Shown: positions 7,119-64,000 of the stretch, in pieces
Layout: each line of letters opens with the position of its first letter
Position numbering within the stretch: position 1 is the first letter of the stretch
Assembly: GCA_022059125.1 (NCBI GenBank)
Contig: JAEUWY010000016.1
Location: 434,001-498,000 of the forward strand
Direction of reading: 5' to 3'
Length of the DNA: 64,000 nt
Source: Corynespora cassiicola
Lineage: Eukaryota > Ascomycota > Dothideomycetes > Pleosporales > Corynesporascaceae
Program-made: the position numbers and the translations under genes
The notes under the pieces: generated by a model
Databases searched by the model: none
Told to the model about the DNA's origin: nothing
The model's input: only the letters and a program-made list of their open reading frames with translations

Positions 7119-8819
7119 TGACGATGATGCGACATTGCTTATGAGCGATCTGGCTCCTTTCAGTGAGAGAATCGAGCGGCTCAGGGCGTCTATCAGTTGC
7201 CTGGCCGGCTTACTGTATCGGAAGCTGCACGCCTGGTCCCACACGATTTGAGTTGGGAAATCTGCACCGCGATGTTCAAGGCCATTTAGCCTGTCGCTAC
7301 GGCATCTCAGTCATTTTCGGCGCATCAGGTCTTGTCGAGTGCTAAGACATACGCAACCCCTTACACGAGGCGAGAAAATCTTGGTCAACTGCGGAAGACA
7401 TGGGAATATGACCCGGACACCGAGCAAGCTCGCGGACTGCTAAATCAGCAGATATACATGCCCAGTGTGTACCTGGATGGCCAGACTGCAGGACCCACTC
7501 CAATCCCTGCGCGGGACCCCGCTGTGGAGATTTTTCTTTCGCTCCGCCCCCGGCACGTTCGACAGGAATGAGGAGGATCGAATGACTTCCCAGATGCACG
7601 CCGTTACGAACCTCTTCGGTCGACTGCCGTTCGATGTTCGCAGGTCTACCATCAAAGACCCACCGGTTAATTTTGCAGGGGTTCTGGATCCCTGTCCTCG
7701 ACATGGTTTCTCTTGCCACGTAACGAATGGGGACCTCAGAACCGGAAATTACTACAGCACAGAACATGCATAGAAGGATAATGGCATAGGGCTAAGGTCT
7801 GTAGAGTGCAGTATGCGAGAGGGTCGGTCAACGCCGCAAGCCAATGGAACCCTGAGCATGAAGCAAAAGCCATCAATCTTGCGTTGCGAATATCGAGTTG
7901 CAGGATGTGGGCAGCTGTATGAACGGCAGGTGCTGGATCAACCTAGATATCGCACATGACTCTTCTCCAGCTCTCAGGGCTGGCGGTTGGGCCCGGAAAT
8001 GGTCGGTACAAGACAGGATGAGACGACGTTTCGGTACCGAAATGTGCAATATATGAAGGTGTGGGGGTGACTGAGTGATGGCTGGACCACTTCATGTACC
8101 ATAGGTCAAACAATGACGATTGTACCCACAGAACCCGGCTATCGGGGTGTCCTACGAGTTGCACCGTGAGACCACACATGCAGATTGGCCAAAGTGAGTG
8201 GGGTCAGCAATCAAAGCAACGCCCTTCCAGCGTGTGGAAAGTCGCACGGTCACGAGGTGAAACCAAAGATTTTCAGTCGAGCAAAAGTGTCTAACACGCT
8301 TGCCCATCCCTTTCCTACTGCGCCCCCTCGAAAAAAAATATAGTGTCAAGTGTGTAGCTCGAGCGTCATACCTCCCTCCTTCCCTGCCCAGCGGAGATCA
8401 CCTCACCGTTAGCATGGAAAAGACGCTTGCGCCCATCCGCCTTGGACCTTCTCCATCCACGATAGCTTCCACACGGCACTTTGAAGCGCCACGGGATGAA
8501 GGGGGCGGGAAGGGGGAGAAAAAAAAAACGTGCGGTAGATTTGCCATCCGCTGTCCACCGGCTGGCTACTTGCTCGCTTCGGAGCCGGGGTCTGCGCTCG
8601 TATGAGAGCGCCCCGATCCAGCATGGGGATATTGAAGAAGCTTATATTGGCGTGTGGAGGGGAGGGGAGGGGGGGGTAGGTCGGTGGGGTTTGGATGGGC
8701 GATTAAGGATGAGGTGGGAGAGGATAGGAGAGGAGAGAAGGGTATGCACCCCGCATCTTGCGTTCTGACTGAGCATCGTACCTGGATGGCTGGATGATAA
8801 GGCCGAACAGCAGGCCCGC

Positions 8820-43300: not shown

Positions 43301-45437
43301 ATGTCCGAAATTATCCTCGAGTCCACAGGGGCATCACTGTGTGGTATCGTCATTGAAGACGCGCAAATCGACTGGAGTATCGCGTGCGTGGCCACAAATT
43401 TCGGGGATAATGACAGCGGATTCTCTGCAGGAGTTACCTCTTTCCCAGGAGGTCAACCTTTGGATACGGTAGATGATGTTGTCGCAAGACAGGTCACACT
43501 GTACGTCCTGCGATTCCGGGAAACGGTCTTTGTTCAGAATCTCCTAGAAGACGATCGCTTCTCCAACGTGTCCGAGTCCTACCTGAGAAGAAACCCCGAT
43601 GGAAAGGCCGTCATTTGCATTCCCGTCATCCATTCGGATCATCTCCTCGGCACCATCTACGTTGAGGGTGCTCCCAATTCCTTCACTGAACGGAATACCA
43701 ACGTCCTTCGCCTTCTCGTCAACCAAATTTCGATTTCGCTAGCCAATGCGCTTCTTTTCAAGGAAGTGGAGCGCGTGAGTGCCTCAAATAAGGCAATGCT
43801 TGAGGTTCAAAAGCACGCCCTTGGACAGGCCCGAGAGGCCGAGATCAAGGCCAAGGAAGCCGAAGCCATTGCGGTCAGGAACATGAGGCTCAAGGAAGAA
43901 GCGGCAAAGGCAAAAAGCTTGTTCCTGGCCAATGTCAGTCACGAGCTTCGAACGCCCCTCAACGGAGTTATTGGCATGTCCGAGCTTCTAAAGGCAAGCC
44001 CGTTGAACCAGGAACAAGCCGGATACGCAGATAGCATCCGGGTGTGCGCTGACACCTTGCTTACGATTATTAACGACTTGCTGGACTACTCCAAACTCGA
44101 AGCGGGCAAGATGAGCGTCATATCCATGCCCCTGTCACTTAATGAGACCATTACAGAAGTCGTCCGAGCGTTGGCATACACCAACGCCGAGCGGGGTCTT
44201 AGGACCGTTGAGCAGCTCGAGCTAGATCCCGAACTCCTCGTCATGGGCGACCCCGTGCGTCTCCACCAGATTTTGATGAATCTACTTTCCAACAGCTATA
44301 AATTCACGCCGAGAGGCTCGGTCACTGTTCGGGCCGTGGTGGACAGCGAAGGAGATGATTGGATAGATGTGACATGCAGTGTCATCGATACTGGTGTCGG
44401 AATCCCAGAGGAGCAAAAGCAAAAGCTGTTCTTGCCGTTCAGTCAGATTGAAAACTCAAGTTCTAGGAGCTATGGTGGCACTGGTCTAGGCTTGAGCATC
44501 TGCAAGGCGCTCATAGAAAACGTCATGGGGGGAAAGGTTTGGCTTGACAGCACGCCCGGCAAAGGAACAACGGTGTCCTTCTCCCTTCGCTTCCAGAAGG
44601 TCGCTAGAACCCAAGGCGCGACCCGTCGGTTGGCGTCCCGAGATCCCGATCCCATGGCCAAGTTCTCGAGCCAGGAAAATGGGCACGAGCAGGCATCCGG
44701 AAACTGCATAGACTTGACACAAGTCCCAAGAAATGAGCTTAGAATCTGCATTGCCGAGGACAATCTCATCAACCAGAGGATCGCCATCAGTTTCGTACAG
44801 AAGCTGGGGTTCAAATGCGATGCATATCTCGACGGGTTCAAGACAATCGATGCGCTTGAACGAGCTAGCGACAACGGTCGCCCATTCCATCTTGTGCTCA
44901 TGGATGTGCAGATGCCGCACTGCGATGGTTATGAAGGTAAGTACATTTCTAAGCGTTCAGTATGCACAACCTGACTGGTCGATAGCAACTCGCCTGATCC
45001 GCAAGCACAAAGACCCCAATATCCGCAACATTCTCATCATTGCCATGACAGCCTCTGCAATTCAAGGCGATCGCGAGAAATGCCTCGAGTCTGGAATGAA
45101 CAACTACCTGGCGAAACCCGTACGTGCGCAGACGTTGAAGGCCCTCCTCGAGAGCTATCTCAGTAAGAAGGAAGATGAAAGGGACATTCCGAATCTGCAG
45201 GCGGAAGCCAATAAGATGGTCCGGGCCGCCCTGAAAGATGCTGTCCAGGGGGGTGGAAAGAAGACAGATGAGGAGAAGAACGATAAAGTAAAGGGAGAGA
45301 ATGGGACCGCGGAGAAACCCAAGACCTCTCGGCCCAGTTCGATTAGGATGAACACTACTCAACGATGGGAGCCGCCGGGAAGCACGGTCCCAACTGCGAC
45401 CGCCAACGGGGGCGAGTCAGATACAACGCCTGGGTAA
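37382..45437 (+). CDS. Hybrid histidine kinase with pseudokinase, AAA-type ATPase and GAF domains (group X-like, 2,399 aa)
   Basis: Two-component sensor. Exons: 37382-37495, 37599-37871, 37971-38539, 39145-44936 and 44986-45437. Domain order: Ser/Thr-kinase-like fold (about 60-400); large ATPase with Walker A GGTTGLGKS (about 593-601) and hhhhED Walker B near CIWCIEDVQNAD; TPR-like helical region; GAF (about 1700-1860); histidine kinase H-box SHELRTPLNG (His 1918), N-box LLSNSYKFT, G1 DTGVGIP, G2 GGTGLGLSI (about 2096); receiver with LVLMDVQMP (Asp 2239) and the Lys of AKPV. This is the layout of S. pombe Mak2/Mak3 and Candida Chk1 (group X). The kinase-like part has HGELRG for HRDLK and NFG for DFG, so it is probably inactive. 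The 605-nt intron 38540-39144 is unusually long. Confidence 0.93.
38540..39144 (+). other. 605-nt intron in the histidine kinase gene
   Basis: Donor GTATGT splits an AGT Ser codon after PAEPD; acceptor CTCCAG restores SRTDIYSLGIL. A perfect TACTAAC branch site lies at 39125-39131, 13 nt before the acceptor. All other introns in the gene are 49-103 nt. No snoRNA box pair was recognised in it. Confidence 0.8.
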
Positions 45438-46594: not shown

Positions 46595-47617
46595 ATGGGC
46601 TTCCACATTCGGAAATTCAGAGTAAAATATCACCCAGAGGACATCCACACATTGATTTCGAAGGAAACGGTGCTCGACATACCCCCATCCGGCGTCTCAC
46701 CCTCGCCCTACTCCCCAGGAACGGCATCGCAATGCCACTCTCCATCATCCTACGCTCCTCCCATTCCAGCCGCCATTCACCATCACGACACATCCTCGCC
46801 CCGCTCCCACCATGACGACCTCACCCCCACCTCCCCCACATCGTCCTCGTCGTGCGCCTCCCCCATGGACCCCTACTACCAATACATCAACACAACGCCC
46901 CAGTTCCTCGGTTTCAACTCCACCACGCTCTCGCGCTCCCTCAGCCTCGTAACGAAGCTCTACATGGACAACAAGGGCGACGTCTCGACGCTCGACCTGC
47001 GCCCCCTCGAGCTCCCTTACGCCGAAGCGCGCGCCTTCCACTACGTCCAGCGCCTCGCCGACACGACGCCGAGCCTGCGCCCCGACCCCGAGTTCGAGGC
47101 CCGCGTCAGGGATGTGTATGGCAGTGAGCGCGCGTTTGCGGATCTCGCGGTCAGGCATTTCATCAGGAGGGTGGGGACGTGGAATGATGTCGTTGCGGAG
47201 CAGCGGAAGAGTTTGCGGAGGACTAGCAAGCGGCGGAGCTGGATTAGCATGCGGTCGCTGAGCGAGCGGAGCGACGACAGCAGCAGCAGCAGCAGCAGTG
47301 CGACCAGCTTTGGCGAGGAGCGCAGCGTGTATCGAGGGAGGTGGTCGGAGCTGGGGCGGCTGCTCAAGGATGAGAAGAGGCGGAGTACGGTGAGTGAGGG
47401 GCGGGGGTCGGGGAGCTCGGAGATTGGGCGCATGCTCAAGGATGAGAAGGTGGTGTATGGGGCGGGGGTTAGTGAGGAGTTGGAGCGGGCGACGACGTTG
47501 GAGGGGTTGGCGCAGTTGGTGCTTGAGGTGAAGAGGTTGGATGCCGGGATTGCGAGGTTGCCGAATGATGTGGCGCTATTGCGGAGGAAGAGTCGGAAGA
47601 CGGTGAGTTGGGAGTAG
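46595..47617 (+). CDS. Hypothetical Ser-rich protein (340 aa)
   Basis: Single exon starting MGFHIRKFRVKYHPEDIHTL. Residues 30-90 are Ser/Pro/His-rich and disordered. Residues about 95-210 look folded (STTLSRSLSLVTKLYMDN, then a region with AVRHFIRRVGTWNDVVAEQR). A poly-Ser run encoded by CAG/AGC repeats lies near residue 230, and the C-terminal third holds two similar segments containing LGRLLKDEKRRSTVSEGRG and IGRMLKDEKVVYG, a small internal repeat. No catalytic motif, signal or membrane segment is visible. Codon use is strongly G/C-ending, like the left part of the window, so it marks the end of that compartment. Confidence 0.65.
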   Translation: MGFHIRKFRVKYHPEDIHTLISKETVLDIPPSGVSPSPYSPGTASQCHSPSSYAPPIPAAIHHHDTSSPRSHHDDLTPTSPTSSSSCASPMDPYYQYINTTPQFLGFNSTTLSRSLSLVTKLYMDNKGDVSTLDLRPLELPYAEARAFHYVQRLADTTPSLRPDPEFEARVRDVYGSERAFADLAVRHFIRRVGTWNDVVAEQRKSLRRTSKRRSWISMRSLSERSDDSSSSSSSATSFGEERSVYRGRWSELGRLLKDEKRRSTVSEGRGSGSSEIGRMLKDEKVVYGAGVSEELERATTLEGLAQLVLEVKRLDAGIARLPNDVALLRRKSRKTVSWE

Positions 47618-49836: not shown

Positions 49837-50970
49837 TTACTCGACATCGACAGCATCAATCTTCTTCTGGCGCTTCTCAACGTCGACGGCGTCAATCTTC
49901 TTTTGGCGCTTCTCAACATCAACAGCGTCGATCTTCTTCTGGGGCTCGCGCTTCTCGACGTCGACGGCGTCAATCTTCTTTTGGCGCTTCTCAACATCAA
50001 CAGCGTCGATCTTCTTCTGGGGCTCGCGCTTCTCGACGTCGACGGCATCAATCTTCTTTTGGCGCTTCTCAACATCAACAGCGTCGATCTTCTTCTGGGG
50101 CTCGCGCTTCTCGACGTCGACGGCATCAATCTTCTTTTGGCGCTTCTCAACGTCAACAGCGTCAATCTTCTTCTGGGGTTCGCGCTTCTCGACATCCACA
50201 GCGTCAATCTTCTTTTGACGCTTCTCCACATCGACGGCATCAATCTTCTTTTGGCGTTTCTCCACATCGACAGCATCGATCTTCTTCTGGCGCTTCTCCA
50301 CATCGACGGCATCAATCTTCTTCTGACGCTTCTCAACGTCCACAGCGTCAATCTTCTTTTGGCGCTTCTCAACATCAACGGCGTCAATCTTCTTCTGGCG
50401 CTTCTCCACATCGACAGCATCAATCTTCTTCTGACGCTTCTCAACGTCCACAGCGTCAATCTTCTTTTGGCGCTTCTCAACATCAACGGCGTCAATCTTC
50501 TTCTGGCGCTTCTCCACATCGACAGCATCAATCTTCTTCTGACGCTTCTCAACGTCCACAGCGTCAATCTTCTTTTGGCGCTTCTCAACATCAACGGCGT
50601 CAATCTTCTTCTGGCGCTTCTCCACATCGACAGCATCAATCTTCTTCTGACGCTTCTCAACGTCCACAGCGTCAATCTTCTTTTGGCGCTTCTCAACATC
50701 AACGGCGTCAATCTTCTTCTGGCGTTTCTCAACGTCGACAGCATCAATCTTCTTCTGACGCTTCTCAACATCGACAGCGTCGATCTTCTTTTGGGGAGAT
50801 CGCTTGTCAAATGGCTCTAATGTGTCAAATTTCGTTAAAAAATCCTCAATTGAATGTTTGCTGGAAGACGTGTACGTACGGGGGCTCTCGAGGCCGTTGA
50901 CCTCAACGGGCATCGCAGAAACGAGAGTGGACATGCCCATCAGGACCGAGAGAATGGTGGTGGACTTCAT
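49837..50970 (-). CDS. Secreted Kex2-processed repeat precursor, candidate RiPP precursor (377 aa)
   Basis: Single exon. Signal peptide MKSTTILSVLMGMSTLVSA, then a pro-segment of about 35 residues ending in DKR. From residue 60 the protein is 26 copies of QKKIDAVDVE, joined by KR; every copy is identical. Four junctions read KR-EP-Q and the first reads KR-SP-Q. Kex2 would cut after KR, a Kex1-like carboxypeptidase would remove K and R, and a Ste13-like dipeptidyl peptidase could remove EP or SP, leaving one 10-residue peptide. The last copy stops right after DVE, the predicted mature C-terminus. Repeated cores between KR sites beside UstYa genes are the hallmark of dikaritin-type fungal RiPPs. 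The lack of Tyr, Phe and Trp in the core is unusual. A Kex2-processed secreted peptide with no cyclisation is the main alternative. Confidence 0.88.
   Translation of the reverse strand: MKSTTILSVLMGMSTLVSAMPVEVNGLESPRTYTSSSKHSIEDFLTKFDTLEPFDKRSPQKKIDAVDVEKRQKKIDAVDVEKRQKKIDAVDVEKRQKKIDAVDVEKRQKKIDAVDVEKRQKKIDAVDVEKRQKKIDAVDVEKRQKKIDAVDVEKRQKKIDAVDVEKRQKKIDAVDVEKRQKKIDAVDVEKRQKKIDAVDVEKRQKKIDAVDVEKRQKKIDAVDVEKRQKKIDAVDVEKRQKKIDAVDVEKRQKKIDAVDVEKREPQKKIDAVDVEKRQKKIDAVDVEKREPQKKIDAVDVEKRQKKIDAVDVEKREPQKKIDAVDVEKRQKKIDAVDVEKREPQKKIDAVDVEKRQKKIDAVDVEKRQKKIDAVDVE
49840..50795 (-). repeat. 26-unit core-peptide repeat array
   Basis: Basic unit 36 nt; four units are 42 nt because of an extra GAGCCC/GAACCC-type EP codon pair. 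The array shows higher-order structure: four 78-bp doublets at 49881-50192 (36 + 42) and four 108-bp triplets at 50301-50732. Units differ at synonymous positions (for example GAT/GAC, GTC/GTT/GTG-type choices) while the peptide is unchanged. Confidence 0.95.
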
Positions 50971-51906
50971 ATTGGAATGCTGGTGGTTCTTCCGTGGGAA
51001 TGGAGAAGGTACTCGGTATTGGGTAGCTTGAGTCGAAGTATTGAATGATGGACTGTTGCGTTCTGATGTTTCCAGTTCGTGCAACGCTGTGAGTTTTATG
51101 TCTTTTGCGTTTCCTCTATAGGTCTATACTCTCACTCAATCTAGTATTCGCCTAGCCTTACTCACTCCAATGTTCACGTAGCCTTACTCACTCCAACGTT
51201 CAACTATCCTTACTCAATCCAGCTTCCACTGAGCTTAGCGACGCTTCTACGACTAACCTTTACACACTATAATCAGAGTGATCAATTACTAGTACAAAAC
51301 CAATCATTCTTACCAAGACATAAGATCTACTGAAGCGCTTACGTACTGAATGATTACTGTTCATAGCCGTAAGCCCCTAGTCAGCGCTTACGAATCACTT
51401 AAATCACGTTGCTCTCGAACTGATCACTTACGTTTGTTTCATGGATAGCTATCTCAAGTATTCATTGTGTACATCTGAAACCCTGGTTCACCAGCTTACA
51501 TGCGCTGACCTTCTAGGATAGTAATATAGATCCACCTGTGTATAATCCAGAGTCACTTGACTTTGTATCACTTTTAGAGACTAAGATATGCTTTTGTAGC
51601 CTTGCGTACGTCTTTAACCCAGATTAGTTGGCGAGAGCCATCTACCAAATCTTCACATCTATGTTGGCGACAACTGTAGACCTGTTGGTGGAGAGAGAGC
51701 CTTCATCGTGCATTATTTTCCTTCTTGGTCGTAATCATACCGTTGACATTTTTTCTAGATCTGTTGCTATGGCTGCCAGAAGAGCCATATTCATAGCCAA
51801 TTGATCACATTCCTAAATCGATGTGCGATATGGAGTCTGTTTTCGCTCTATTGTTACAAAAATGTACTATGATAGAATATTTCCAAGCCCTTGAGTCAGA
51901 ATCATT
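50971..51906. other. Promoter region of the precursor and gap to the cytochrome gene
   Basis: Holds the 26-bp tandem repeats, several CGCTTACG-type TTAC motifs near 51338-51385, and otherwise A/T-rich non-coding DNA. No gene seen. Confidence 0.55.
51125..51228. promoter_or_regulatory. Four 26-bp tandem repeats upstream of the precursor gene
   Basis: Units at 51125, 51151, 51177 and 51203 share a CCTTACTCACTCCAA-like core. TTACTCA is exact in three (51158, 51184, 51210) and TCACTCA in the most divergent. They lie 155-258 bp upstream of the precursor start. TTAC half-sites are what Yap/Pap1-type basic regions read, and the cluster encodes such a protein at 57.6-58.6 kb. Binding is inferred. 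Confidence 0.65.
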
Positions 51907-53364
51907 CTACTTTTCCTCCTCCCCAATCACAAATGGATCAACATCATCGCCTTCTACATTTTTATATCCTTTCTCGGCGCTAGTGCGCCTCGCAAACATC
52001 ACCCCACCCAACGCCAAGGTCTCCACGAAGACTATGGCCACCCACATCCATTTTAACGCGCTGCCCTTTCCAGCATGTAAAAGACCCCTGTAGAATATTA
52101 GTGAGATTATACGGCTACTGGAGACAAGCACTGAAACTGACATGAAGACATTGGTGTTGAGGGCTATGAAGAGGGCTCGGCCAAGATAGATATGAAACAA
52201 TGAGACTCTAGTCCTCTGCCCAAATTTGAGGTAGTTGAGGTGGTGCCTGTAGCCGAACGCAACCTGAACAGGCACTCCGATCGTGATCGCAACACCAATC
52301 AGCTTGTGAAGCGAGGCGAAAGTTTCAAACTTGACAAAATTAGCCGGATGTGCATATCAATGATTTTTGTTTATGACGTACGTGGAATACACTCGTGCTT
52401 TTGAAAATACCAATGAAGCAACCGAGCATCAGTCCAAAGGCAGACAGAGCTTGTACGATCCAATGACCACGAAATGCCCATTTAAATCCGCTACGGATCA
52501 AAAGAATCCCGAAACAATTCAGAACGACGGAGAAAGATAAGATCAAACCATGTGCGTTCCACATATTGATGGGGATTGACGCATAAGTAGATGCCCCTGA
52601 TCTACTCGATCCAGAAGGATCCATAGCATGAATCAGCGATCGATCTGTAGACACTGCCGGGTAATCTTCATCTGGGTTCGTTGATAGTGACTGAGCCATA
52701 TCAACCAGAGTGAGGCCTAGTCTTGAATTCAGACGAGCATTACTGAGATCAAAACTAACAACAACTCACCATAATCTGTGTGCATGCTTATACGCAAATT
52801 CGGATCGTTAGTTTTGGTCTGCTGTAAATAGCTGGTCGCGAACAACCATGACTGTTGATCAGTTGTGGCGTTTAGTGGACCAAGACCGACAGTCTCGCAT
52901 GAGTAGCACGTGGCCTTTAGGATATGGAATCCGTTTCGATCAATTTCCGTGCTGTGAACATGAACTTGTCTTTGGTTCTTGAGTGGCTTTGGAGCGACGT
53001 GCTCAGTCGTCGAGCGTAACGATAAGACAATATCTTCACTATGTCGGTACATATGAATTAAAGGATTTTTAGGATGAGAAAACTAACCACCGTCTTGTTC
53101 TCCCGGCCATAGCACAAACATCAAGGCTCGCTCCATTATATCTCCCACTCCGAACGCCGCCCAGCCGATGCCTTCATGAAACTTGACCGAAAATGTCATG
53201 AGCAAATCATGCCCCCTTTCATGCTGCGATTTGACAGTCTTCACCGCCATGCACATATCCGTGTACCGTGTGGGGTTGACGTGACATATCTGTGCTGGCT
53301 CTGATCCTCGGCAGGTGTTGATGATGATAAAGAGAAATGTGAAAAATACGTTGACCTGCTTCAT
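51907..53364 (-). CDS. DOMON (CDH-cytochrome-like) and cytochrome b561 membrane protein (414 aa)
   Basis: Probable transmembrane electron carrier or ferric/ascorbate reductase type protein. Five exons: 53088-53364, 52770-53033, 52382-52716, 52142-52329 and 51907-52087; introns of 54, 53, 52 and 54 nt. A signal peptide (VNVFFTFLFIIINTCRG) is followed by a DOMON-type heme domain to about residue 185, with GIGWAAFGVGDIMERALMFV typical of the cellobiose-dehydrogenase cytochrome fold. Then come five membrane helices with the four b561 heme histidines: WNAHGLI, SLHKLIG, GYRHH and LFHIYLGR. It is divergent from the first UstYa gene across a 427-bp promoter, so it is likely a cluster member, perhaps feeding electrons to the oxidases. 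Confidence 0.82.
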
Positions 53365-53791
53365 AATTGCTTGGAAAACAATGAATCGAATCAGAAGTTC
53401 AAAATGCCATACAATTTTCGTTCAATATAATATGGAGCGATGGTGCTGAAGTGTACTCGGTTGGCACTAACTGTGCTCGGTTGGATTAGTCACGTGCAGC
53501 AGCGTAGTCAGCGTGAATTAGTGCTGACTGTACCATGACTATTTGCACACACACACACACACAAACGATGACAACCGGGAACAAGACCTTTAATCACAAT
53601 TCTCAATCATTCCAGAAGAATGAATGTTTAGACAACTATATAGGCACTTACTGTTGCAACATGTGATTAGTAATGCCTTGTTTTATCTGTCTCACTCCCC
53701 AATGACCTTGCTTCCATTGTCACTTTACATGTTAGTCTTTCCTTCTTCGCATAGTTTGATTTCATCGGCAAATCCTTGAGGCAACGGAGGA
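53365..53791. promoter_or_regulatory. Divergent promoter with Yap-type sites
   Basis: Lies between the DOMON-b561 gene and UstYa-like gene 1. It carries TTAGTCA at 53486-53492 and TTAGTAA at 53667-53673, both known Yap1 response-element variants, plus a (CA)n run near 53547-53562. Sites are short, so significance needs a count against background. Confidence 0.5.
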
Positions 53792-54529
53792 ATGTCTTCA
53801 AGTTATTCGGATTTCATCAAACGATCCACTAGCGCGGTAGTCGCCGCCATGCACTCTCATCCCCAGCAATCGACAAAATATTCGGATCTTAGGTCGTCTG
53901 CTACCTCAGACAGAAGCGAGGATATTTCGACCCAGCCCAACGAACATGAGTCGGATTCACCTCTCTGCAAAACACAGTCTCGATATGCGATAATACCCTA
54001 CGTAATCAATTTTTTGCTGGCAGTAGGGTTGACGGTTCTTGTCGGATTCATTTTTCGCCCATTTCCACCGCATGGGCCTAAGATGAAAACACTGAGCTGC
54101 GGTTCTTCGCCTGCTGAAGCTCGCAGTAATGGCTGCACGTACGATGTGCTTGGAAACATCTGGGTTCCGACGCCATGCCTTGACACCGAAAACCTCGCTG
54201 ATTTTAAGCGCATGGCTGAGTGGCAGGCATACGACTCTGCCAACGCTACGAATCGGCTTACAGAACAAGAGATGTCCGAATATCTTATTCCAGATGGCTA
54301 CTGGACACCGGTACGAGAGCACATGATTCATTGCGCTCTAATGTGGAGAAGATTGCACAAGGGCTTTGAGAAGGACGCAAGATTGTTGGATAAGCATGTT
54401 CTTGAATATCACCACACAGAGCACTGCAGCTTGACCTTGATGGAGCATCTCGATATGCCCACCTCTTTCTTAGATGAGATTCGTACACGAACAGAAGCCG
54501 GGTATTCTAAATGCCAGGTTCCTGTCTGA
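53792..54529 (+). CDS. UstYa/DUF3328-family oxidase, copy 1 (245 aa)
   Basis: UstYa-type proteins are single-pass membrane enzymes that oxidise or cyclise fungal ribosomal peptides. Single exon. The N-terminal 65 residues are cytosolic, followed by a membrane helix (IPYVINFLLAVGLTVLVGFI). The lumenal part begins with a motif of the form C-G-S...GC-x-Y-D-x4-W-x-P-x2-C-x-D, shared with the other three copies here. The two HxxHC motifs expected of UstYa are present: HMIHC in PVREHMIHCALMW and HTEHC in YHHTEHCSLTL. All features are intact. It is most like the copy at the right window end, sharing the NIWVP-PC segment and the DDFKR/ADFKR-type continuation, so the two look like duplicates. Confidence 0.85.
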   Translation: MSSSYSDFIKRSTSAVVAAMHSHPQQSTKYSDLRSSATSDRSEDISTQPNEHESDSPLCKTQSRYAIIPYVINFLLAVGLTVLVGFIFRPFPPHGPKMKTLSCGSSPAEARSNGCTYDVLGNIWVPTPCLDTENLADFKRMAEWQAYDSANATNRLTEQEMSEYLIPDGYWTPVREHMIHCALMWRRLHKGFEKDARLLDKHVLEYHHTEHCSLTLMEHLDMPTSFLDEIRTRTEAGYSKCQVPV

Positions 54530-55844
54530 CTTTTGGGACGAGGGTGTGATTACCACTCAGCTGCTATCATGTTTTGGATCGTAGATATCCCCATAGCGAA
54601 AAAATAAATGATAGAAACATTTGAGCAACAAGACTTTACATTTGATGTGGATTATAGGAAGAGTGGTTATACTACGCTTAATATCTACCTTCCTACCCCA
54701 CAAGTTGATTAAGAGCACCAGTGACTTGAGCTGTTAGGTGGGCAGCGTGCAAATACTAGTGATGAGCGGTTCCATAACGTCCTCGGAGAAATTTCCCAAA
54801 CTAAAATGGAAGCTTGAAATGCTATGAGGTGTTTTTTGAAGGTGCGCTAAAGATATTCCAAAAATAAGACGATAGCTTGGGACATTACTACTAAGAGTTG
54901 GTAGTTTGAGTTTGTGAAACCTCACGCCCAGCGCTATGCACCGCCACCATGCCACTGCCCAGACACGGATGACTCTGTCAAAACAGTTTATTTCGAACCA
55001 AAATGAAATAAGGTCTATATTCGCCCTGTGCAGATGTGTTTTGGAATTTGCTGCTGGGTGGACGACTAATTCAGCCCCCAAGCTATTGGCGTTTCTTGTA
55101 GAATTTTCATGGATACAACATCGTTATCCATACACAATGCTTAGGATACGCTCATATATATAGTGGTGATGCAATTATTTATCAATTTGAACAAGTGTAT
55201 GTGTGTCTCAAACAAACCTTGGAAGGGTAAGACGAGTATACGCACGTGACTTGTGCAACTTTAAACTACAAGTAAGGTATTACAAGAACGCGACACTCAC
55301 TGAACATGTCCCAAATATCAAGGATACATGGTAGCTTGACTGAAAAAGTTTCAGACATTTTGGGCCTCAATAGATCGGCCTGATGAACGACAGTTATACA
55401 TGCGTGTGGTGCCGCGGAAGCGTACCTGGAATCTCCTTCGCTTTGCAGTGCGCCAGGTCAACTCCAATCGCGATTCACAGCCTAGACATGCCCTCATTGT
55501 CTACCGGCAATGGATGCATTACTTTCAGTCAGGATGACAAGTACATCAGGCACAGTCCGCCGACAAATGAAGTTAGCGTCTTACACATGCAATTACTAGA
55601 CACTTGTAGTAAGACTTACCCTTGATTCTATCAACCAGGTCTCGTGACTCGATGCAGAACGGTGCAGGGAGTGGAGTGGATTCTGAAAGAGGACTAATGT
55701 GATTATTGTTTGGAAGGCCGATTTCAAGTCTAAACTGACATTTTCGCAGAACCCAAGACCTCTGGCTGCGTAAAGCATTGCGGCTCCAATCACCTATTCT
55801 AAGGACCAAAATTAAGTTTGATACATCTTTATTTATCATCACAT
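54530..55844. other. Intergenic within the cluster, no gene seen
   Basis: A/T-rich; short frames on both strands lack motifs. Close to the transporter start there are TTACTAG and AGTAAGACTTAC sequences near 55590-55618, loosely like the sites in other cluster promoters. Confidence 0.5.
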
Positions 55845-57511
55845 ATGGCCGATTTATGGAAATCTGAGGATGTTGCCTCTCAAATTTCGCAAGAGGAGGG
55901 GCGCTCATCGCTATCTTCTACGCTTTTCGAGGACAGCGTCACATCTTCAAGCGCCAATATGGCACCATTAGCCCTCATAGAGCAACCGAAGCGAGAAAAT
56001 CGAAAGCTACCCACCCAGTCCCTTATGGTCATGACATGTGGAGTTGGAGGGTACGTCGCATATTGAATAGACGGCGATGTTTTGTGGAGGCTGAAGCTTT
56101 ATGCAGGTTACAGGTTCTATGGTCGACAATATTTTCCCATGGCTCGTCCTATCTATTTTCACTCGGCATATCCAAAACTCAGTCATCCCTCATCTGGGCA
56201 GTTGCACCGATCTGCGGCTCAATCGTTCAGCCTATTTTAGGTGTCATCAGCGATCGATCTCGTATCTCATGGGGCCGACGGAGGCCATTCATTCTAGGGG
56301 GCGTGGTGACTACCGTCTTAGCTGCCCTAATACTTGCCTGGGCTGGGCCAATCTCGACGGCTTTTTGCAATTTATTCGATATACGCGACATCGATGGTAC
56401 GAGGGCAGCTGTGACACAGTTCACGGCTATCCTATCGGTTATCCTTCTCAATATTTCAATTCAGCCTCTCCAGTTAGGTCTTCGCTCTTTGAATGTCGAT
56501 GTTTGCCCGCGGGAACAGCAATCTATAGCAAGCGCATGGGCAAGCCGTTTTGCTGGTATTGGTAACATCTTTGGATACGTTCTTGGATCTTTACCACTTC
56601 CATGGATTTCCAGTGATTATGAGGCCATCCGTTTCCGGTATATGGTTCAATGCACCATCGTCGCTCTTATCGTCACGTCATTCATCAGTTGCTATTATAC
56701 TGAGGAAGAGAACCCAAAATTGTCAGAGTATGATCCAGAAGTCGAAAGGCCAGTCTATCGAATTTTCCAGTATATGATTGAGGGCTTCTCAAAAACGTCA
56801 CAGAGGGTACGTCGCGTTTACCTCATACAGTTCTTTTCCTGGTTTGGTTGGTTTGGATTTCTATTCTACAGTACCAGCTGTATCAGCCAACTCTACGTCG
56901 AGGAACAAGCAAAAAACAATGTTACGATAAGCTCGACACTCAAAGACCACGGGATGAGAATTGGGGCAATGGCAAATTTAATGTTCGCCATCGTGGCCCT
57001 AGCCACAAACATTGTACTACCACAACTCTCGACACCTGCGAAATCGATGACTTCACGCACCAAAAACCACGACTGGGAGACACGTCATCTTTTCTCGCAA
57101 TTACCTTTTATCTGGGGCTTTGGTCAGCTGGTCTATGTGATTTGCGTTCTGTCAATGGTCATGGTTTCGTCAAGCACGACAGGAACGTTCATGATTGCAA
57201 TCGCAGGATTGTCATGGGGTATCACTCAATGGGTACCATTTGCTATCATTGGAGAAGAGGCAGCAAGACACCAAATCAACGATGGCTCCATTCAAAGAGA
57301 AGATGGCGGCGTGTGGAGTGTGGTGCAGGGCGGCAGAATCATGGGCATGCACAATGCTGCCATATCCATACCGCAAATCATCGCTGCTCTTTTCAGTAGT
57401 GCGATCTTTTGGATTGCGCAAAAGTTAGGCAGGGAAAATGCTATAGTGTGGGTGATAGGATGGAGCGGGCTTCCTGGAGCAATAGCTGCTTGGCTTGCTT
57501 TCATAATGTAG
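55845..57511 (+). CDS. MFS transporter of the SUC/GPH sugar-carrier type (536 aa)
   Basis: Twelve-helix plasma-membrane carrier. Exon 1 is 55845-56050 and exon 2 is 56107-57511; removing the 56-nt intron joins TCGVGG to LQVLWSTIFSHGSSYLFSLG, the usual first helix of the family. The conserved loop after helix 3 reads DRSRISWGRRRPFILGG, the RxGRR signature of sucrose-type carriers. The C-terminal half holds GISWGITQWVPFAIIGEEAAR-like sequence, as in S. pombe Sut1 and plant SUC proteins. The N-terminal 50 residues are hydrophilic and cytosolic. Its place in the cluster suggests export or uptake of the product, since dikaritin clusters usually include an MFS gene, although this subtype normally carries sugars. 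Confidence 0.85.
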
Positions 57512-57643
57512 ACTAGCTGGTATGATGGTGTACTTTCGTACGCTTGTGATATACGTCGAAACAACTTCTTCATCGTTTTTGTTAGCACCTGGTATCACGT
57601 TAGTTTGAATTTGCATTTATCACTAGCCTGATTGCAAGATTTA

Positions 57644-58627
57644 TTACGACTTGAATTCTATGTCTGCTCCAGCTCTTATCAACATTCTCACAATCTCCGC
57701 ATAATTATGCTCTACTGCCACATGTAACGGGGTATCTCCTTCTATATTAATTCCATTGACATTCAAGCAATGTGATAAGGCGAACGAAACTAAGGGTGCA
57801 TGGCCGAATTGTGCGGCGAGATGCAATATACTGTTTCCGTAATCGTCCACAGTATAGACATCTGCACCATTCTCAACAAGAAGCTTTGCAATATTGTAAC
57901 GACCCTTTATCACGGCTTTCTGTAGCGCATTGAGATTTTGAGTCGAGGTATATTGTGATGATAAGGCAGATTGCGATGATGGCACAGCAGAACGACCCTA
58001 CGCGAAGCACCATTAGCAACCCAAAATGAACAGAAACAAAGCCGAGGAGATCATGGAAGACATACAAATAAGACAATATCACTATCCCGATCCGTAAGAG
58101 GAGCTATAAAGTCAAAATCGGTAGTGCCATTGTCCTTTTGGTGTGAGGTGAGCGCACTGTCTTCCCGGTCGGGCATTGACGAAAGTGCTTCTGTATCCTT
58201 TGTACTGCCAAACAAAACGGTTTGGATGGAGGATGTATCCGATGATCCTGCAGCTGGCACGTTCATTGTATCCAGATCAGACAAGAGTACGTCTGAAGCT
58301 GCAGGGGTGATTGGATGTAGACAAGCCTTCTCAAAGTGGGTCGAGTCTTTGGGTGACATTTGAGATGACTGTTGCTGTTGCTTGGGCTTCAGTGGGCTAG
58401 CTGATAGGCTTTGATTGAACGTTTCTAGCTGCTGTAGTCGCCGTTTAATGTTACGGCCTGGGAGGTCAGCCAGAGGCGGAGCTCACTTGGACAAAACAGT
58501 ACCTACGATAGTTACGCTGTGCGATCCTGTTTTGGACCCGTCGTCTCTCATTAGCATCGGTCAGCTTTCTCCAGTCCTCGTCTTCCTCTCTTGGTGACAT
58601 GATTCCTTCAACGTTTCTTGGTGACAT
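57644..58627 (-). CDS. bANK-type regulator: basic region of bZIP type plus ankyrin repeats (288 aa)
   Basis: Likely cluster-specific transcription factor. Three exons: 58507-58627, 58066-58457 and 57644-57997; introns of 49 and 68 nt. The splice of exons 1-2 restores RRRVQNRIAQRNYR followed by RNIKRRLQQLE, a Yap-type basic region (NRxAQRxYR) with little leucine zipper after it. The middle is Ser/Gln/Asp-rich. The C-terminal 100 residues form three ankyrin repeats (LNALQKAVIKGRYNIAKLLV, DDYGNSILHLAAQFGHAPLV, GDTPLHVAVEHNYAEIVRML). A basic region plus ankyrin repeats is the architecture of TOXE, the HC-toxin cluster regulator. This protein is shorter than TOXE. It is divergent from UstYa-like gene 2. 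Confidence 0.83.
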
Positions 58628-59329
58628 TGGTTCTTGTTAGTTGTAGTAACCTCAGTTTTGGTATTTATACTGTGGCGCCAATAGCAACTAATTGTATAGT
58701 ATGCGTGTTCGGTGTATGCGTGAGACATGGCAGTCTGCGCCATGGTACTAGCGTTGAGCTTGAGGTGCGTGCAGGCTGCGTCGGCGATCATCTCCGCATT
58801 GTCCTCTGGTACGTATCATAGGACGGCACCAAATTAAACTCCCGGGCCGGCGCGGAGTTCATCTTTCGGGCCGCCACGCATTAACTTTCGGGCCGGCGCA
58901 CGTTATTCAAGGCCGGCGTGGGACCAGGTAGTTGGGCGGAGTTTTAGGGAGATAGCTAGCATACTCATATGGTTTTTGTACGCGTGACTTGTAGTTTGCG
59001 GTTGTACTTGCGTAATCAGGCATGGATACAAAGGCAGCCTCGGTCCGAGATCATCAGCGTAGCAATAGGTACTAGACCTGCCTGGGCAGTGAATGGCCTA
59101 TTAGTAGATTAGGTACATTATACAACGGAGCTGCTTAGTACCGAGCTGTGTCAGCTCTCAAATCTGCCCGCCGCGATTTACCAAAACGAGCCAGATGTCC
59201 ATCTGTAGTTTGGCATATAGCTGAGACAGCTTTGCGTATCACCAGCGTCTACTTGATGGAAGATCGCATCATCGGAATTCTGGCTGAATTTATTGTTTTC
59301 TAATCCGACGAGCTCGTAGACACATCGCG
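58628..59329. promoter_or_regulatory. Divergent promoter of the bANK regulator and UstYa copy 2
   Basis: About 0.7 kb. It holds four imperfect copies of a GC-rich element (CGGGCCGGCGC-like) at about 58842-58918 in otherwise A/T-rich DNA, and TTAGTAG and TTAGTAC sequences near 59100 and 59133. Which element serves which gene is unknown. Confidence 0.5.
58842..58918. repeat. Four imperfect GC-rich direct repeats
   Basis: Cores GGGCCGGCGC, GGGCCGCCAC, GGGCCGGCGC and GGCCGGCGTG follow each other at roughly 22-24 bp spacing. GCCGGC is itself palindromic. They lie 215-290 bp upstream of the bANK start. Confidence 0.7.
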
Positions 59330-60061
59330 ATGTCTAACTCTCTCGATATGCCGAAACCCTTCACTGGTATACTACCGCTTGGTGATAACTATCACCAAAA
59401 AAGGCTTTCCGAAGACTTGGAGGAACAAGACACACTGCTCCCCGAGAACTCCCCCTCAGAACCAGTCGGGCCGAAAGGTCGCCGATGCATCTCCAATACG
59501 AATTTAGTGGCTTTTGCCATCTTGTCTTTATCGATCGTCATCGGGTCGCTCGTATGGCTGAGCGTATCTGCGAGCCCGCAAGCCGACAAAACACCGAAAT
59601 CGTCAACGTCGTACACCGACTGTGGTAGCAACTACTCGACAGCCGCTGCAGCTGGGTGCATATACGACATCATTGCACCTCAATGGATGCCACCAGAATG
59701 CTATAATGCAAAGCTATCCAATGAACACGCTTCGAAGGTCTCAAAACCCATGTTCTTCCGCTGGCCAAACCTGACAGAGCCGCTTTCCGACGATCCTATG
59801 GAACTTTCACTGCATGACACAGTCTGGACATTCGATGAATACCATACAACACACTGTGTATATATCCTCGAACTCGCAGCGTTAGCAGCGGCGATGACGT
59901 TTTCCGGGCATCAAGATGTTTACTTGAACAGTATTTCATCGAATTCCAACCATACAAAGCATTGTACCGAATGGCTCTCGAATAGCACCCATTCTCCTGG
60001 CCCGGTGGAAATCCGACATCCCGGCAACATACTCCGCTGCCATGCATTATCGGCTCGGTGA
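59330..60061 (+). CDS. UstYa/DUF3328-family oxidase, copy 2 (243 aa)
   Basis: Single exon with start MSNSLDMPKPFTG. A cytosolic N-terminus of about 60 residues is followed by one membrane helix (NLVAFAILSLSIVIGSLVWL). The lumenal CG-x-N...GCIYD...W-MPPEC motif matches the shared family signature. HxxHC motifs are HTTHC (in DEYHTTHCVYIL) and HTKHC (in NHTKHCTEWL), with normal spacing. The C-terminal 20 residues end differently from copies 1 and 3, lacking the aromatic tail. It is the most divergent of the four copies, so it probably has its own role rather than being a recent duplicate. It is divergently transcribed from the bANK regulator. Confidence 0.85.
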   Translation: MSNSLDMPKPFTGILPLGDNYHQKRLSEDLEEQDTLLPENSPSEPVGPKGRRCISNTNLVAFAILSLSIVIGSLVWLSVSASPQADKTPKSSTSYTDCGSNYSTAAAAGCIYDIIAPQWMPPECYNAKLSNEHASKVSKPMFFRWPNLTEPLSDDPMELSLHDTVWTFDEYHTTHCVYILELAALAAAMTFSGHQDVYLNSISSNSNHTKHCTEWLSNSTHSPGPVEIRHPGNILRCHALSAR

Positions 60062-61607
60062 GATTGTTGATAAAAATCTCTCAGGATGGCTACCCATGTA
60101 CAAGACAAAATGAAGCCTTGCACAAAGATATAGGTCACCAATAAAGTATGGTTATCCTTGAAAGTAGAGTTACTGGGCATGATTTGAATTATGATTTTTT
60201 GGCAGAGGCTTTGGACATTCCGTGTGGCTTGTCAAAATGCCATCTGAATTGAACAACTCGATCTAAGACGAGAGAAGCTTTGGAGGAACCAGGCTCGGCT
60301 AAGCTGTCATCTGCTGGAGAACCTGGGCTTCCATGGTGGTGATGCATTAGTACTGTCGCCATTCCCCGTTAGTGCGTTAGTGCGTATCAGAAGTACGCAA
60401 AAGTTGGAAGCACATAACCACGCTTCCGTACTATGTTACGAACGGAGGAGAGCTAAGCGCTTCTAGTACTGCTGATCATCATGCCTAGCCTGCTCCGCAC
60501 CGAAGCCAAGCTTTTGGCGTCCCACCAAAAGACATGTTCCCCAGAGCTTGAACCAAGTCTGTAAAGCTTGAACCCTCGTGAACCTGTGCCTAAGTATGCA
60601 AGAAGTTATGTAAGGGGAAAACCCTTTCATTGCATCGCATTTCCGGCAGGCAGGGCTGCTCGGACTACCCGACGTGCAATCATGCAGCACCGGCCGATGG
60701 CCGCATTCGCTCCGTCCTCACCGCTTCACTTTTGCCTCGCTCGCAAGAGTTGCGCCGAATCCTGAAGATCAGGCCATGTAATGGATTTTCGGACGAATTC
60801 GCGTAACGCTAAGGTACCAAAGAAGCATTCGCCGAGGCAGCCTAGTCAGAAATAAGAAACAAGCAGCGAATCTCCCAGTAGGTTGCGCGCATTTTCCCGT
60901 TTCCTACTTCTTGGTGTTGTTAAGCACTCTTCTTGGAGCGGAGGCGCCAATTATTAATTTATCTGCTGCCTAGATTCACAGAACCTGGTGCAAGGGTGAC
61001 TAGAACCTCAGTTGGGTTACTAATCACCTTAGTATGTCGCTCATAGCCGTATAATGCCGTGCTGAGCAGCGGATTACTACATATTAGTCATTGGACGTCC
61101 CAATTGGCTCAACACACTCCTCTCTTAGCATACGATTGCTATTGCTACATCTTGGTATGAGCAGTATCTGAGTCGATTCAGAGATGTAGCATATGAGATT
61201 GGCATTAATCTAATATAGAGTACTTCATCACTGTTTTCTTCGCAATCGAACTATAAAGAACGTAGCTTACGGTCAACGCTTACTATTACGTGAATTCGGC
61301 ACCGTCATTGGCGTAGCTATATTCCAATACAGTAAGACAGCTGCTGGGCCGACTTGGGATCCACTTGCTACTTCTGCAAAGAACTCTCTCATACCACCTT
61401 TACAGGGCAGAGTGGTAGCACGCGCTCAAAGGGGGCATCACCAGAAAGGAGAGCTACCGAATACTCCCGCACTCGACTAATCCAAGAGAACGTCGAGGAG
61501 ATTCTATTCCGTCAGGGTGGTTCTTCGAGCCTCCCAATCTTCACATCCAAACTCGAACCAAAGCACGGAAATCAAATCTTGACCAAGTCGGTAGAGCACG
61601 CGAAGTC
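60062..61607. other. 1.5 kb gap in the cluster, no gene seen
   Basis: Short frames lack motifs. TTACTAA at 61017-61023 and TTAGTCA at 61084-61090 resemble Yap1 response elements and lie about 520-590 bp upstream of UstYa copy 3. The stretch just before copy 3 is probably its 5' leader. Confidence 0.5.
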
Positions 61608-62309
61608 ATGGGCTCCCTTTCGACGAAGCCTTCAAGGCGCGACTTCACCAAAGCATATGTCCCAATTTCCAACTCCGATCCCAAAATCACGGCAGATTTC
61701 CGTAGTACAGAGAAGCGTCGACGCCGACAGACAGTTGTTATCCTTTCGTCTTTCGTCGCCGTTCTGATACTACTTGTCCCATTCTCTTACATTCTCCTAC
61801 GCAAAAGTGCAGGCACCAGCGCATTCAACAACACCAGCCTCACCGTTCAGCACGACAACATCGGATCATTTATAGTCTGTCCCGAGAATCCCTCGTCTGC
61901 ACGAGAATCGGGATGTTCCTTTGATCTACTCGCCAACGGTTGGATCCCCGCGCCGTGCTTCGACGCGACTATGCACCACGACTTCGTTGACGGCAGCGAC
62001 TACGGCTTCTTTTACGACCAAAAAGGCGAGCAAAGAGTTCATCAAGACGCAATCATGGAGGGAGATAACAGCAGGTATCCTGATGGGCTCTGGGTGACGT
62101 TTGAGGAACATGTCAGTCATTGTCGCTACTTGGTCAACGGTTCGATCAGAGCCGTCTCCCGGCCAGAAAAGGCCTTCCTCGACGTTTACTTAGATCGAGA
62201 TCACATGATGCATTGCTATGGAGTGCTTGGAGAGAGCCGACCTCTCTCTCACATCGAAACCTATGTCAAAGCTTTCTTCGAGACTCGTCGATGCTACATT
62301 CGTGATTAA
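61608..62309 (+). CDS. UstYa/DUF3328-family oxidase, copy 3 (233 aa)
   Basis: Single exon. The frame is preceded by an unrelated upstream open stretch. The N-terminus MGSLSTKPSRRDF is followed by a basic TEKRRRRQ patch and a membrane helix (TVVILSSFVAVLILLVPFSY), consistent with type II topology. The lumenal signature reads C-x-ENPSSARESGC-x-FD-x4-W-x-PAPC-x-D. HxxHC motifs are HVSHC in EEHVSHCRYL and HMMHC in DHMMHCYGVL. All expected features are intact. The tail YVKAFFETRRCYIRD is like that of copy 1 in holding a terminal Cys. Likely acts on the repeat precursor in the secretory pathway. Confidence 0.87.
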   Translation: MGSLSTKPSRRDFTKAYVPISNSDPKITADFRSTEKRRRRQTVVILSSFVAVLILLVPFSYILLRKSAGTSAFNNTSLTVQHDNIGSFIVCPENPSSARESGCSFDLLANGWIPAPCFDATMHHDFVDGSDYGFFYDQKGEQRVHQDAIMEGDNSRYPDGLWVTFEEHVSHCRYLVNGSIRAVSRPEKAFLDVYLDRDHMMHCYGVLGESRPLSHIETYVKAFFETRRCYIRD

Positions 62310-63636
62310 GCGGTTTCTGGTCTCTCTACATTCAGCTTTGCAAATGTGGTTTTTGCAAAGAGAAGATTTGATGAGGAAGGAAGGGCCAAATGAATCTCTT
62401 TAGAGCCCTGCTTCATTTTGCCAGACGCAAGACACGTAGTGATTTTTAGATTGGTTCAAATCACGAAAATATGTATAATACTATTGCAAACCCTTTCGCC
62501 TGATATCTCATGGCTTACAGTGCTAGTTGTATGTTTTATCTAGATAAAAATGTGGATATGCTACGCATCAATTATCATTAACAAATAACTAGTTGTCTGT
62601 GTTAGAAGAAGTATATAATAAATCTAATCTAACTAAAAGTATAATAATAATGCCTAAAGTTATATACTCTCTTGTAGCAACAGCTCGGAAAAAAAATCGG
62701 AACTTTGCCTTCAAGTTTTGGTTTAAAACCAAGTGCTACAACGGTGGAGTATACATCATAGATGGCTGGCATTTTACGGCATCGGATATCAAAATTCGGA
62801 GTACCCTTGAAGAAAAGAATGTGGCCCTGATGGAGCGGGCTGAATAGCTGAATATTTCGTCATAGCTTTCTGTCACCAAAAAAATACATACGCCGCACCG
62901 AGAAGCATCATAGGTAGTTTTGTCATTTATTATATGGGGATTTCAAAATACATTCGAATACGAAGAGCTTCAAAACTGCCACAAACTAGATCAGGGTCTC
63001 TCCAGCCTGACCTACAACCACCCCCCGGCGATCGCTGCAGGGCTTTCGATCTACATAGTTGCCGAGTCCAATACCGCTCATCTAGGAGATAACGGCATGA
63101 TCAGATTTTCGTAGACTGGATTCCTATTTTGAACAGAAAGTGGAGCTCGATTTAGACCATGTGGATGCTAATCTGACCCCACCAGGGTCTTCACCCCCTG
63201 TAGTTCTTTAGTCCAGGACCGCCTATGTGAACGTATATGATGCCATTTCCGGCCTATATTGCTTTCCGCATAGCTTTTAGTAAGACGCTAGTCCTGATAG
63301 ATCTTTAGTAACGGAATGTGCCGAAAACGCTTACTCGTGCTGACTGTATCCGTTGCTTTAGAATGATCCATGTACTAAGCGGCCCAATACGTACCCGATC
63401 TTAACCTAGATATACATAGGTAAAAACGTTTAGGCGATGGTATGGTTTTCTTGACTGTATTGCTTTCAGTACATACTAGTGTTGCGACAACGTACATCCT
63501 CCACTCGCAAGGGATTTTGGCGGATTCCCAGGATATCCAACAGCCTGATTGTGAACTTCAGTGGTTCAAAAGTAATTAAACACCTCTTGTACCTTGATCG
63601 CGAGATCTAAACTAACTATTTAATAGGATAACATCC
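62310..63636. other. A/T-rich gap, no gene seen
   Basis: Very A/T-rich at 62450-62660. Two short plus-strand frames (62593-62847 and 62920-63114) lack recognisable motifs. TTAGTAA occurs twice (63277-63283 and 63305-63311) about 330-360 bp upstream of UstYa copy 4. Confidence 0.5.
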
Positions 63637-64000
63637 ATGGATGTGTCTCATACCTCATCATACGATGATATCACACAGGCAGAAGGATCGTTTGAAAAAA
63701 GGCTACTATTAGAACCAGACAGCTACAAAGCATTGTCATTCAAGAAAGGGGGCCTGAGAAAAATAATCGCATTACACACACTCACTTTTCTACTCGCGAT
63801 AGCTGTCACAACCCTTGCTGGCTTTCTCATTCGACCGTTTCCCCCGCGGGTACCACTCATGAAGACTCTGCACTGTGGTTCAAACTCAACCGAGGCCCGA
63901 GCATTAAACTGTAGTTACGACGTTCTTTCAAACATTTGGGTCCCCAATCCGTGTATTGATAGAAAGAATCTCGACGACTTCAAACGTCTTGCCCAATGGC
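63637..64000 (+). CDS. UstYa/DUF3328-family oxidase, copy 4, 3'-truncated by the window
   Basis: The visible 121 codons start MDVSHTSSYDDITQAEG, with a membrane helix (TLTFLLAIAVTTLAGFLI) and the lumenal signature C-G-S-N...NCSYD...NIWVPNPC-x-D. The RPFPPRVPLMKTLHCGS stretch and the DDFKRLAQW segment match copy 1 (RPFPPHGPKMKTLSCGS and ADFKRMAEW), so copies 1 and 4 are close paralogs. The HxxHC motifs would lie beyond the window, so activity cannot be judged. Its presence shows that the cluster continues to the right. Confidence 0.85.
   Translation, partial: MDVSHTSSYDDITQAEGSFEKRLLLEPDSYKALSFKKGGLRKIIALHTLTFLLAIAVTTLAGFLIRPFPPRVPLMKTLHCGSNSTEARALNCSYDVLSNIWVPNPCIDRKNLDDFKRLAQW

What the first reader, a model, noticed from the sequence alone, without database searches (positions are those of the whole stretch)
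49837..64000. Candidate ribosomal-peptide (dikaritin-like) cluster with four UstYa-type oxidases
Seen: a secreted precursor of identical KR-separated repeats, four UstYa/DUF3328-type proteins (three complete with both HxxHC motifs), a DOMON-b561 protein, an MFS carrier and a bANK regulator, all in 14 kb. Known: ustiloxin, phomopsin, epichloecyclin and victorin come from such precursors plus UstYa proteins. Inferred: one pathway making a modified peptide from QKKIDAVDVE. No tyrosinase, methyltransferase, P450 or peptidase gene was found inside the window, so the rest of the pathway may lie to the right.
Basis: partly seen in the sequence, partly recalled or inferred. Interest (0 to 1): 0.95.

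Follow-up and report, generated by a model that had tools for sequence, protein, structure and literature searches.

The report
Fungal repeat-peptide cluster with unusual oxidases
A fungus carries a compact gene set that probably cuts one ten-residue peptide out of a 26-copy precursor and oxidises it with four copper-type enzymes that standard searches miss, beside a membrane protein that could supply the electrons such enzymes need.

Summary
At 49837-50970 (-) lies a secreted precursor with 26 copies of QKKIDAVDVE between Kex2 sites; all DNA differences between copies are silent, and an environmental relative keeps the core while its leader has diverged. Beside it are a DOMON-b561 protein, an MFS carrier, an ankyrin regulator and four proteins with two HxxHC motifs each; the fourth ends at window-equivalent 64305. 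Mad1 and mainly housekeeping genes follow, so the rest of a dikaritin pathway was not found to the right. 'UstYa/DUF3328, dikaritin-like' is only partly supported: none of the four matches PF11807, profile similarity to it is no more than the two motifs, and the core has no aromatic residue. They belong to a Pfam-less family with six members found in this genome: four here, one in a tyrosinase/P450/PF11807 repeat-peptide locus, one alone. Relatives of parts of the cluster occur in Alternaria, Plenodomus and Periconia. A characterised DUF3328 enzyme needs copper and electron input from an unidentified partner. The DOMON-b561 protein keeps all six expected haem-ligand positions and is divergently paired with the first oxidase: a concrete candidate donor, but that role is inferred.

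The parts
49837..50970 (-). Kex2-processed repeat precursor, 377 aa, 26 copies of QKKIDAVDVE
   Evidence: relative P0023
51907..53364 (-). DOMON (CDH-cyt) - cytochrome b561 protein, 5 exons, 414 aa
   Evidence: model; Pfam; orthologues; haem-ligand positions
53792..54529 (+). W1, (HxxHC)2 membrane protein, 245 aa
   Evidence: model
55845..57511 (+). MFS carrier (MFS_1, MFS_2), 2 exons, 536 aa
57644..58627 (-). ankyrin protein with bZIP-like basic region (by eye), 3 exons, 288 aa; likely regulator
59330..60061 (+). W2, (HxxHC)2 membrane protein, 243 aa
61608..62309 (+). W3, (HxxHC)2 membrane protein, 233 aa
63637..64000 (+). W4, (HxxHC)2 membrane protein; both HxxHC motifs lie beyond the window, stop at window-equivalent 64305; 48% identical to W1

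Best explanation
A small cluster that makes a modified secreted peptide. The precursor enters the secretory pathway; Kex2 cuts after KR, a carboxypeptidase trims KR, and a Ste13-type dipeptidyl peptidase trims the occasional SP/EP, so all 26 copies give QKKIDAVDVE (sequence shown, processing inferred). The four (HxxHC)2 proteins, anchored by one membrane helix with their catalytic part in the same lumen, bind copper as DUF3328 enzymes do and oxidise aliphatic positions of the peptide, with or without cross-linking (inferred from motif, model and context). The DOMON-b561 protein passes electrons from cytosolic ascorbate through three haems to the lumen and keeps that copper reduced (inferred). 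The ankyrin protein regulates and the MFS carrier transports (inferred).
For: Core kept by selection: 70 of 70 differences silent, 9 of 9 distinct site changes, same core in P0023 while only 33 of 57 leader positions agree. Four of the six family members found in the genome sit here; a fifth sits in a locus with a second repeat precursor, PF11807 UstYa, tyrosinase, methyltransferase and P450. Linkage elsewhere: Plenodomus W1 and W4 relatives carry tags NX059_006013 and NX059_006011; Periconia W4 and DOMON-b561 relatives are on contigs of the same length, 193056. W1 model (pLDDT 92) puts the motifs on two neighbouring helices, as described for CctR. CctR needs Cu(I), O2 and electrons, and its authors propose an accessory donor. 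M77/H177 align with CDH positions 65/163 and four b561 His are invariant in 4 of 4. DOMON-b561 and W1 are divergent, 427 bp apart. The host has one convertase P-domain match and four DPPIV-type matches.
Against: No PF11807 match; similarity to PF11807 no greater than the motifs alone give (2 of 60 motif-keeping shuffles score above the observed; A1 against A3 only 1%; A4 against A3 26%). One aligned relative (P0005) has HMIYC for the first motif. No Tyr, Trp or His in the core. The 10 other CDH-cyt loci in the genome all lie more than 490 kb from any listed PF11807 or W locus, so a linked donor is not general. The precursor itself was found in no named Alternaria, Plenodomus or Periconia proteome (candidates capped at 7997). 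No shared promoter words. No expression or product data.
Confidence: 0.55

Rival explanations
1. The precursor yields an unmodified linear signal or effector, as alpha-pheromone precursors do, and the (HxxHC)2 proteins act on another substrate.
For: XP dipeptides after KR are a Ste13 signature that PMC6339444 says is generally found only with alpha-pheromones in Ascomycota (passages); no aromatic residue; KEPs without DUF3328 are the majority (6120 of 7878).
Against: Four oxidase-like genes and the precursor in one 14-kb island with linkage of several members conserved in other genera; a W-family member also sits in a second repeat-precursor locus; the core has none of the W-rich features described for pheromone types.
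Confidence: 0.25
2. A true dikaritin cluster: the W proteins are divergent DUF3328 members and do UstYa-type macrocyclisation.
For: Double HxxHC, signal peptide and KR-separated repeats; hhalign aligns exactly both motifs (prob 52%; full column shuffles reach it in 0 of 60).
Against: No PF11807 match; motif-only similarity; no Tyr for a phenol ether.
Confidence: 0.15
3. The DOMON-b561 protein is a metal (ferric/cupric) reductase for uptake that merely lies in the cluster.
For: Plant CYBDOM HYP1 reduces ferric and cupric substrates (abstract and passages); most CDH-cyt loci here are unlinked to such oxidases.
Against: Divergent pairing with W1; orthologues found only in Alternaria, Periconia and two unnamed sources, with the Periconia one on a contig of the same length as a W4 relative.
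Confidence: 0.4

Closest known systems
Dikaritins (ustiloxin, phomopsin, asperipin-2a; victorin grouped with them)
   Same: Secreted precursor with KR-separated repeats; clustered membrane proteins with two HxxHC motifs
   Different: W proteins do not match PF11807; core lacks Tyr and Phe; no tyrosinase in the cluster; product unknown
DUF3328 copper enzymes (CctR; ApnU, AprY as cited there)
   Same: One membrane helix, HxxHC(x)nHxxHC on two helices in the predicted model
   Different: No sequence similarity beyond the motifs; distinct conserved Cys/Trp/Pro block before the motifs; copper untested; a linked candidate electron donor
KEPs without linked DUF3328 (survey PMC7329392; type G-9 includes Corynespora and Alternaria, 0 of 48 with DUF3328)
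   Same: Kex2-processed repeats
   Different: Linked to an oxidase family a PF11807 scan cannot see. Whether G-9 is this precursor could not be checked: its logo and tables are not held
CYBDOM proteins (HYP1) and the cellobiose dehydrogenase cytochrome domain
   Same: DOMON Met/His positions fused to b561 with four invariant His
   Different: Located in a peptide cluster; partner and activity untested

Membership tests
UstYa/DUF3328 (PF11807) | Match to the Pfam model above its cut-off | tested here: not met
   0 matches on contig C16 among 26 genome matches; W1-W3 and the W4 N-terminal part unmatched; 22 of 22 W1/W4 relatives carry no Pfam
UstYa/DUF3328 (PF11807) | Two HxxHC motifs | tested here: met
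   W1-W4
UstYa/DUF3328 (PF11807) | Common fold or profile homology | tested here: inconclusive
   hhalign 52%, 1%, 26%; control shows motif-only signal; no solved DUF3328 structure found by sequence; fold searches listed no convincing match
UstYa/DUF3328 (PF11807) | Binuclear copper, O2 and electron dependence | not testable with these tools
   needs purified protein
Dikaritin | Signal peptide plus KR-separated repeats | tested here: met
   (signal peptide read by eye)
Dikaritin | Tyr in the core for the side-chain ether | tested here: not met
   QKKIDAVDVE, 26 of 26 copies
Dikaritin | Cross-linked product | not testable with these tools
   no metabolite data
KEP | Secreted protein with repeats at Kex2 sites | tested here: met
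   convertase present
CYBDOM electron carrier | CDH-cyt and b561 domains | tested here: met
   both above cut-off
CYBDOM electron carrier | DOMON Met/His and four b561 His | tested here: met
   M77 and H177 align with CDH 65 and 163 (that these are the CDH ligands is recalled); His 236, 265, 300, 338 invariant in 4 of 4 (ligand role inferred)

The most novel reading that the evidence does not exclude
A dedicated membrane electron wire (CDH-cytochrome-type DOMON fused to b561) has become part of a gene cluster with a Pfam-less family of (HxxHC)2 copper oxidases. It is the accessory electron donor that DUF3328 biochemistry predicts but has not identified, and the system modifies a Lys/acidic peptide with no aromatic residue.
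Probability: 0.3. Interest if true: 0.78.

Novelty: new variant of a known kind. Interest (0 to 1): 0.6.

Why it matters
DUF3328 enzymes halogenate, hydroxylate and cyclise unactivated carbons, but the natural electron source of the one characterised in PMC12435403 is unknown; this cluster offers a gene to test. If the Pfam-less family acts like UstYa, surveys that rely on PF11807 (1758 of 7878 KEPs scored as DUF3328-linked in PMC7329392) miss clusters of this kind, and a profile of the family would show how many.

Tried and rejected
Rest of the pathway to the right: 50 kb listed as ORFs. Eleven of the larger right-hand ORFs were given to Pfam: Mad1, a leucine carboxyl methyltransferase family protein (L009:3330-4223), an AMP ligase, a 3HCDH, Mcp5 PH, Cns1/TTC4, SHMT, a cation ATPase piece, a cupin, Rad21, Sua5. 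The smaller ORFs were not. The carboxyl methyltransferase and the AMP ligase lie beyond Mad1 and I treat them as outside the cluster; that is a judgement. Tyrosinase: nearest on C16 is at 779 kb, 48 of 48 candidates scored. P450 and Methyltransf_25 searches scored only part of their candidates.

More copies of the precursor: none convincing in the genome (one E 0.04 hit at C1:5374210, in whose 10-kb surroundings L038 the repeat scan found no KEP).

Extra genes in the cluster's gaps: only short frames, 55 to 129 residues.

Shared promoter words: 5 eight-mers in three or more of six upstream stretches against 7.7 in 40 Markov shuffles.

Horizontal transfer was considered because of low GC (0.41-0.49 in 48-64 kb); no tree was built. 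RIP: 3 of 18 one-kb steps have TpA/ApT above 0.89 (threshold recalled), not pursued.

Whether Kex2 also cuts at KK, leaving IDAVDVE, was not decided.

Papers: CctR PMC12435403 whole text in three parts; PMC7329392 abstract and sections 6, 7, 9; PMC6339444, PMC12048977, PMC9632046, PMC9233826, PMC10784544 passages only. Searches for print: fragments of the core, 0 papers; 'DUF3328' with 'cytochrome b561', 0 papers; three of DUF3328, cellobiose dehydrogenase, CBD9-like, b561, 0 papers; two of DUF3328, cytochrome b561, DOMON, UstYa, 65 papers of which 20 were listed, one of the 20 (PMC10668714, an antifungal review) holding both 'DOMON' and 'UstYa' strings and not read. No supplement was searched.

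Full report
WHERE IT IS. The window is C16:434001-498000 of a 44.35-Mb assembly in 23 contigs. The cluster runs from 49837 to window-equivalent 64305, within 48-64 kb at 41-49% GC; most of the rest of the window is 52-68%. To the left is a hybrid histidine kinase at 39185-44974 and an unmatched ORF at 46595-47617. To the right Mad1 starts at window-equivalent 64936, followed mainly by housekeeping genes.

THE PRECURSOR. 377 residues with an N-terminal signal-like stretch, a pro-region and 26 copies of QKKIDAVDVE. The copies have 15 DNA versions. All 70 differences from the commonest version are third-position and silent; they comprise 9 distinct site changes. With about a quarter of random changes silent, 9 of 9 has a probability near 3e-6 if changes are independent, a simple model that ignores gene conversion between copies. 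The only relative found (P0023, environmental) has 9 copies of the same core, while 33 of 57 leader positions agree. Selection keeps the peptide more than the leader. Five of 26 copies carry SP or EP after KR, a Ste13 signature (passages of PMC6339444), so trimming would give one product from all copies. The host has one convertase P-domain match and four DPPIV-type matches.

THE FOUR (HxxHC)2 PROTEINS. In an alignment of ten members, including all four here, the invariant positions are C103, C115, D118, W124, P126, C129, the six metal-type residues of the two motifs, and C241 (W1 numbering). One relative outside that set, P0005, has HMIYC for the first motif. None of W1-W3 nor the W4 part in the window matches a Pfam family convincingly, and the whole-genome PF11807 search has no match on C16. 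Profile comparison with seven PF11807 proteins of the same genome aligns exactly the two motifs: 52% with the broad alignment, 1% and 26% with two others. A control that keeps the motif columns and shuffles the rest scores above the observed value in 2 of 60 trials; full column shuffles never do (0 of 60). Sequence therefore shows a shared motif, not membership. A model of W1 residues 66-245 from 27 sequences has pLDDT 92 and pTM 0.78 and puts the motifs on two neighbouring helices, 109-128 and 141-154 of the modelled stretch, after a single long N-terminal helix. That is the arrangement described for CctR (PMC12435403). No solved structure matched convincingly. The genome searches found six members: four here, one at C20:51.4 kb and one at C1:558 kb. 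The C20 member lies within about 20 kb of a second repeat precursor (QHEYG in 9 pieces), a PF11807 UstYa, a tyrosinase, a methyltransferase and a P450. That is a dikaritin-like set and ties the new family to such loci.

THE DOMON-b561 PROTEIN. 414 residues in five exons. Six relatives were found, 55-69% identical, in three named Alternaria species, Periconia and two unnamed sources. M77 and H177 align with positions 65 and 163 of the solved cellobiose dehydrogenase cytochrome domain (E 0.009), recalled to be its haem ligands. Four b561 His are invariant in 4 of 4 sequences. The gene is divergent from W1 with 427 bp between them. In Periconia a DOMON-b561 relative and a W4 relative are on contigs of the same length. 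The CctR authors show that their enzyme needs Cu(I), O2 and electron input and propose an accessory protein. A plant DOMON-b561 protein passes electrons from ascorbate and reduces cupric substrates (PMC10784544, abstract and passages). The held library has no paper with both 'DUF3328' and 'cytochrome b561'. Against generality: the 10 other CDH-cyt loci in this genome all lie more than 490 kb from any listed PF11807 or W locus.

HOW IT COMPARES. The KEP survey PMC7329392 (abstract, sections 6, 7 and 9) finds DUF3328 genes near 1758 of 7878 KEPs and Tyr in 65.6% of their repeats. QKKIDAVDVE has no Y, W or HH. Fragments of this core occur in no held main text. The cluster works like a dikaritin cluster in outline but fails two membership tests, PF11807 and Tyr in the core, so I call it a new variant of a known kind, not a dikaritin.

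SHOWN AND INFERRED. Shown: gene content, repeat conservation, right-hand boundary as far as read, the family's distribution in this genome as found, absence of PF11807 matches, conserved ligand positions. Inferred: processing, copper, oxidation of the peptide, electron donation, regulation, transport. The biological role (toxin, signal or antimicrobial) is open.

Noticed in passing
L031-L033 (G000:C20:31001-61000); precursor L032:2911-3624: A second repeat precursor (QHEYG[L/V]DADESANE-type, with Tyr) beside a PF11807 UstYa, a tyrosinase, a CARME-type methyltransferase, a P450 and a W-family member: a dikaritin-like locus.
   Followed up: partly
L036:5029-5643 (G000:C1:558 kb): A lone W-family gene with no repeat precursor seen in the surrounding 30 kb; the 10 kb beside it (L035) has no frame of 90 residues.
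   Followed up: partly
window 51134-51221: A 26-bp tandem repeat, 3.4 copies, just upstream of the precursor's start.
   Followed up: no
G000:C16:1347041-1349734: A P450 match and the genome's best b561 match lie about 1 kb apart.
   Followed up: no
G000:C5:129145-133704: Two PF11807 UstYa loci beside a P450 match: another possible oxidase cluster.
   Followed up: no
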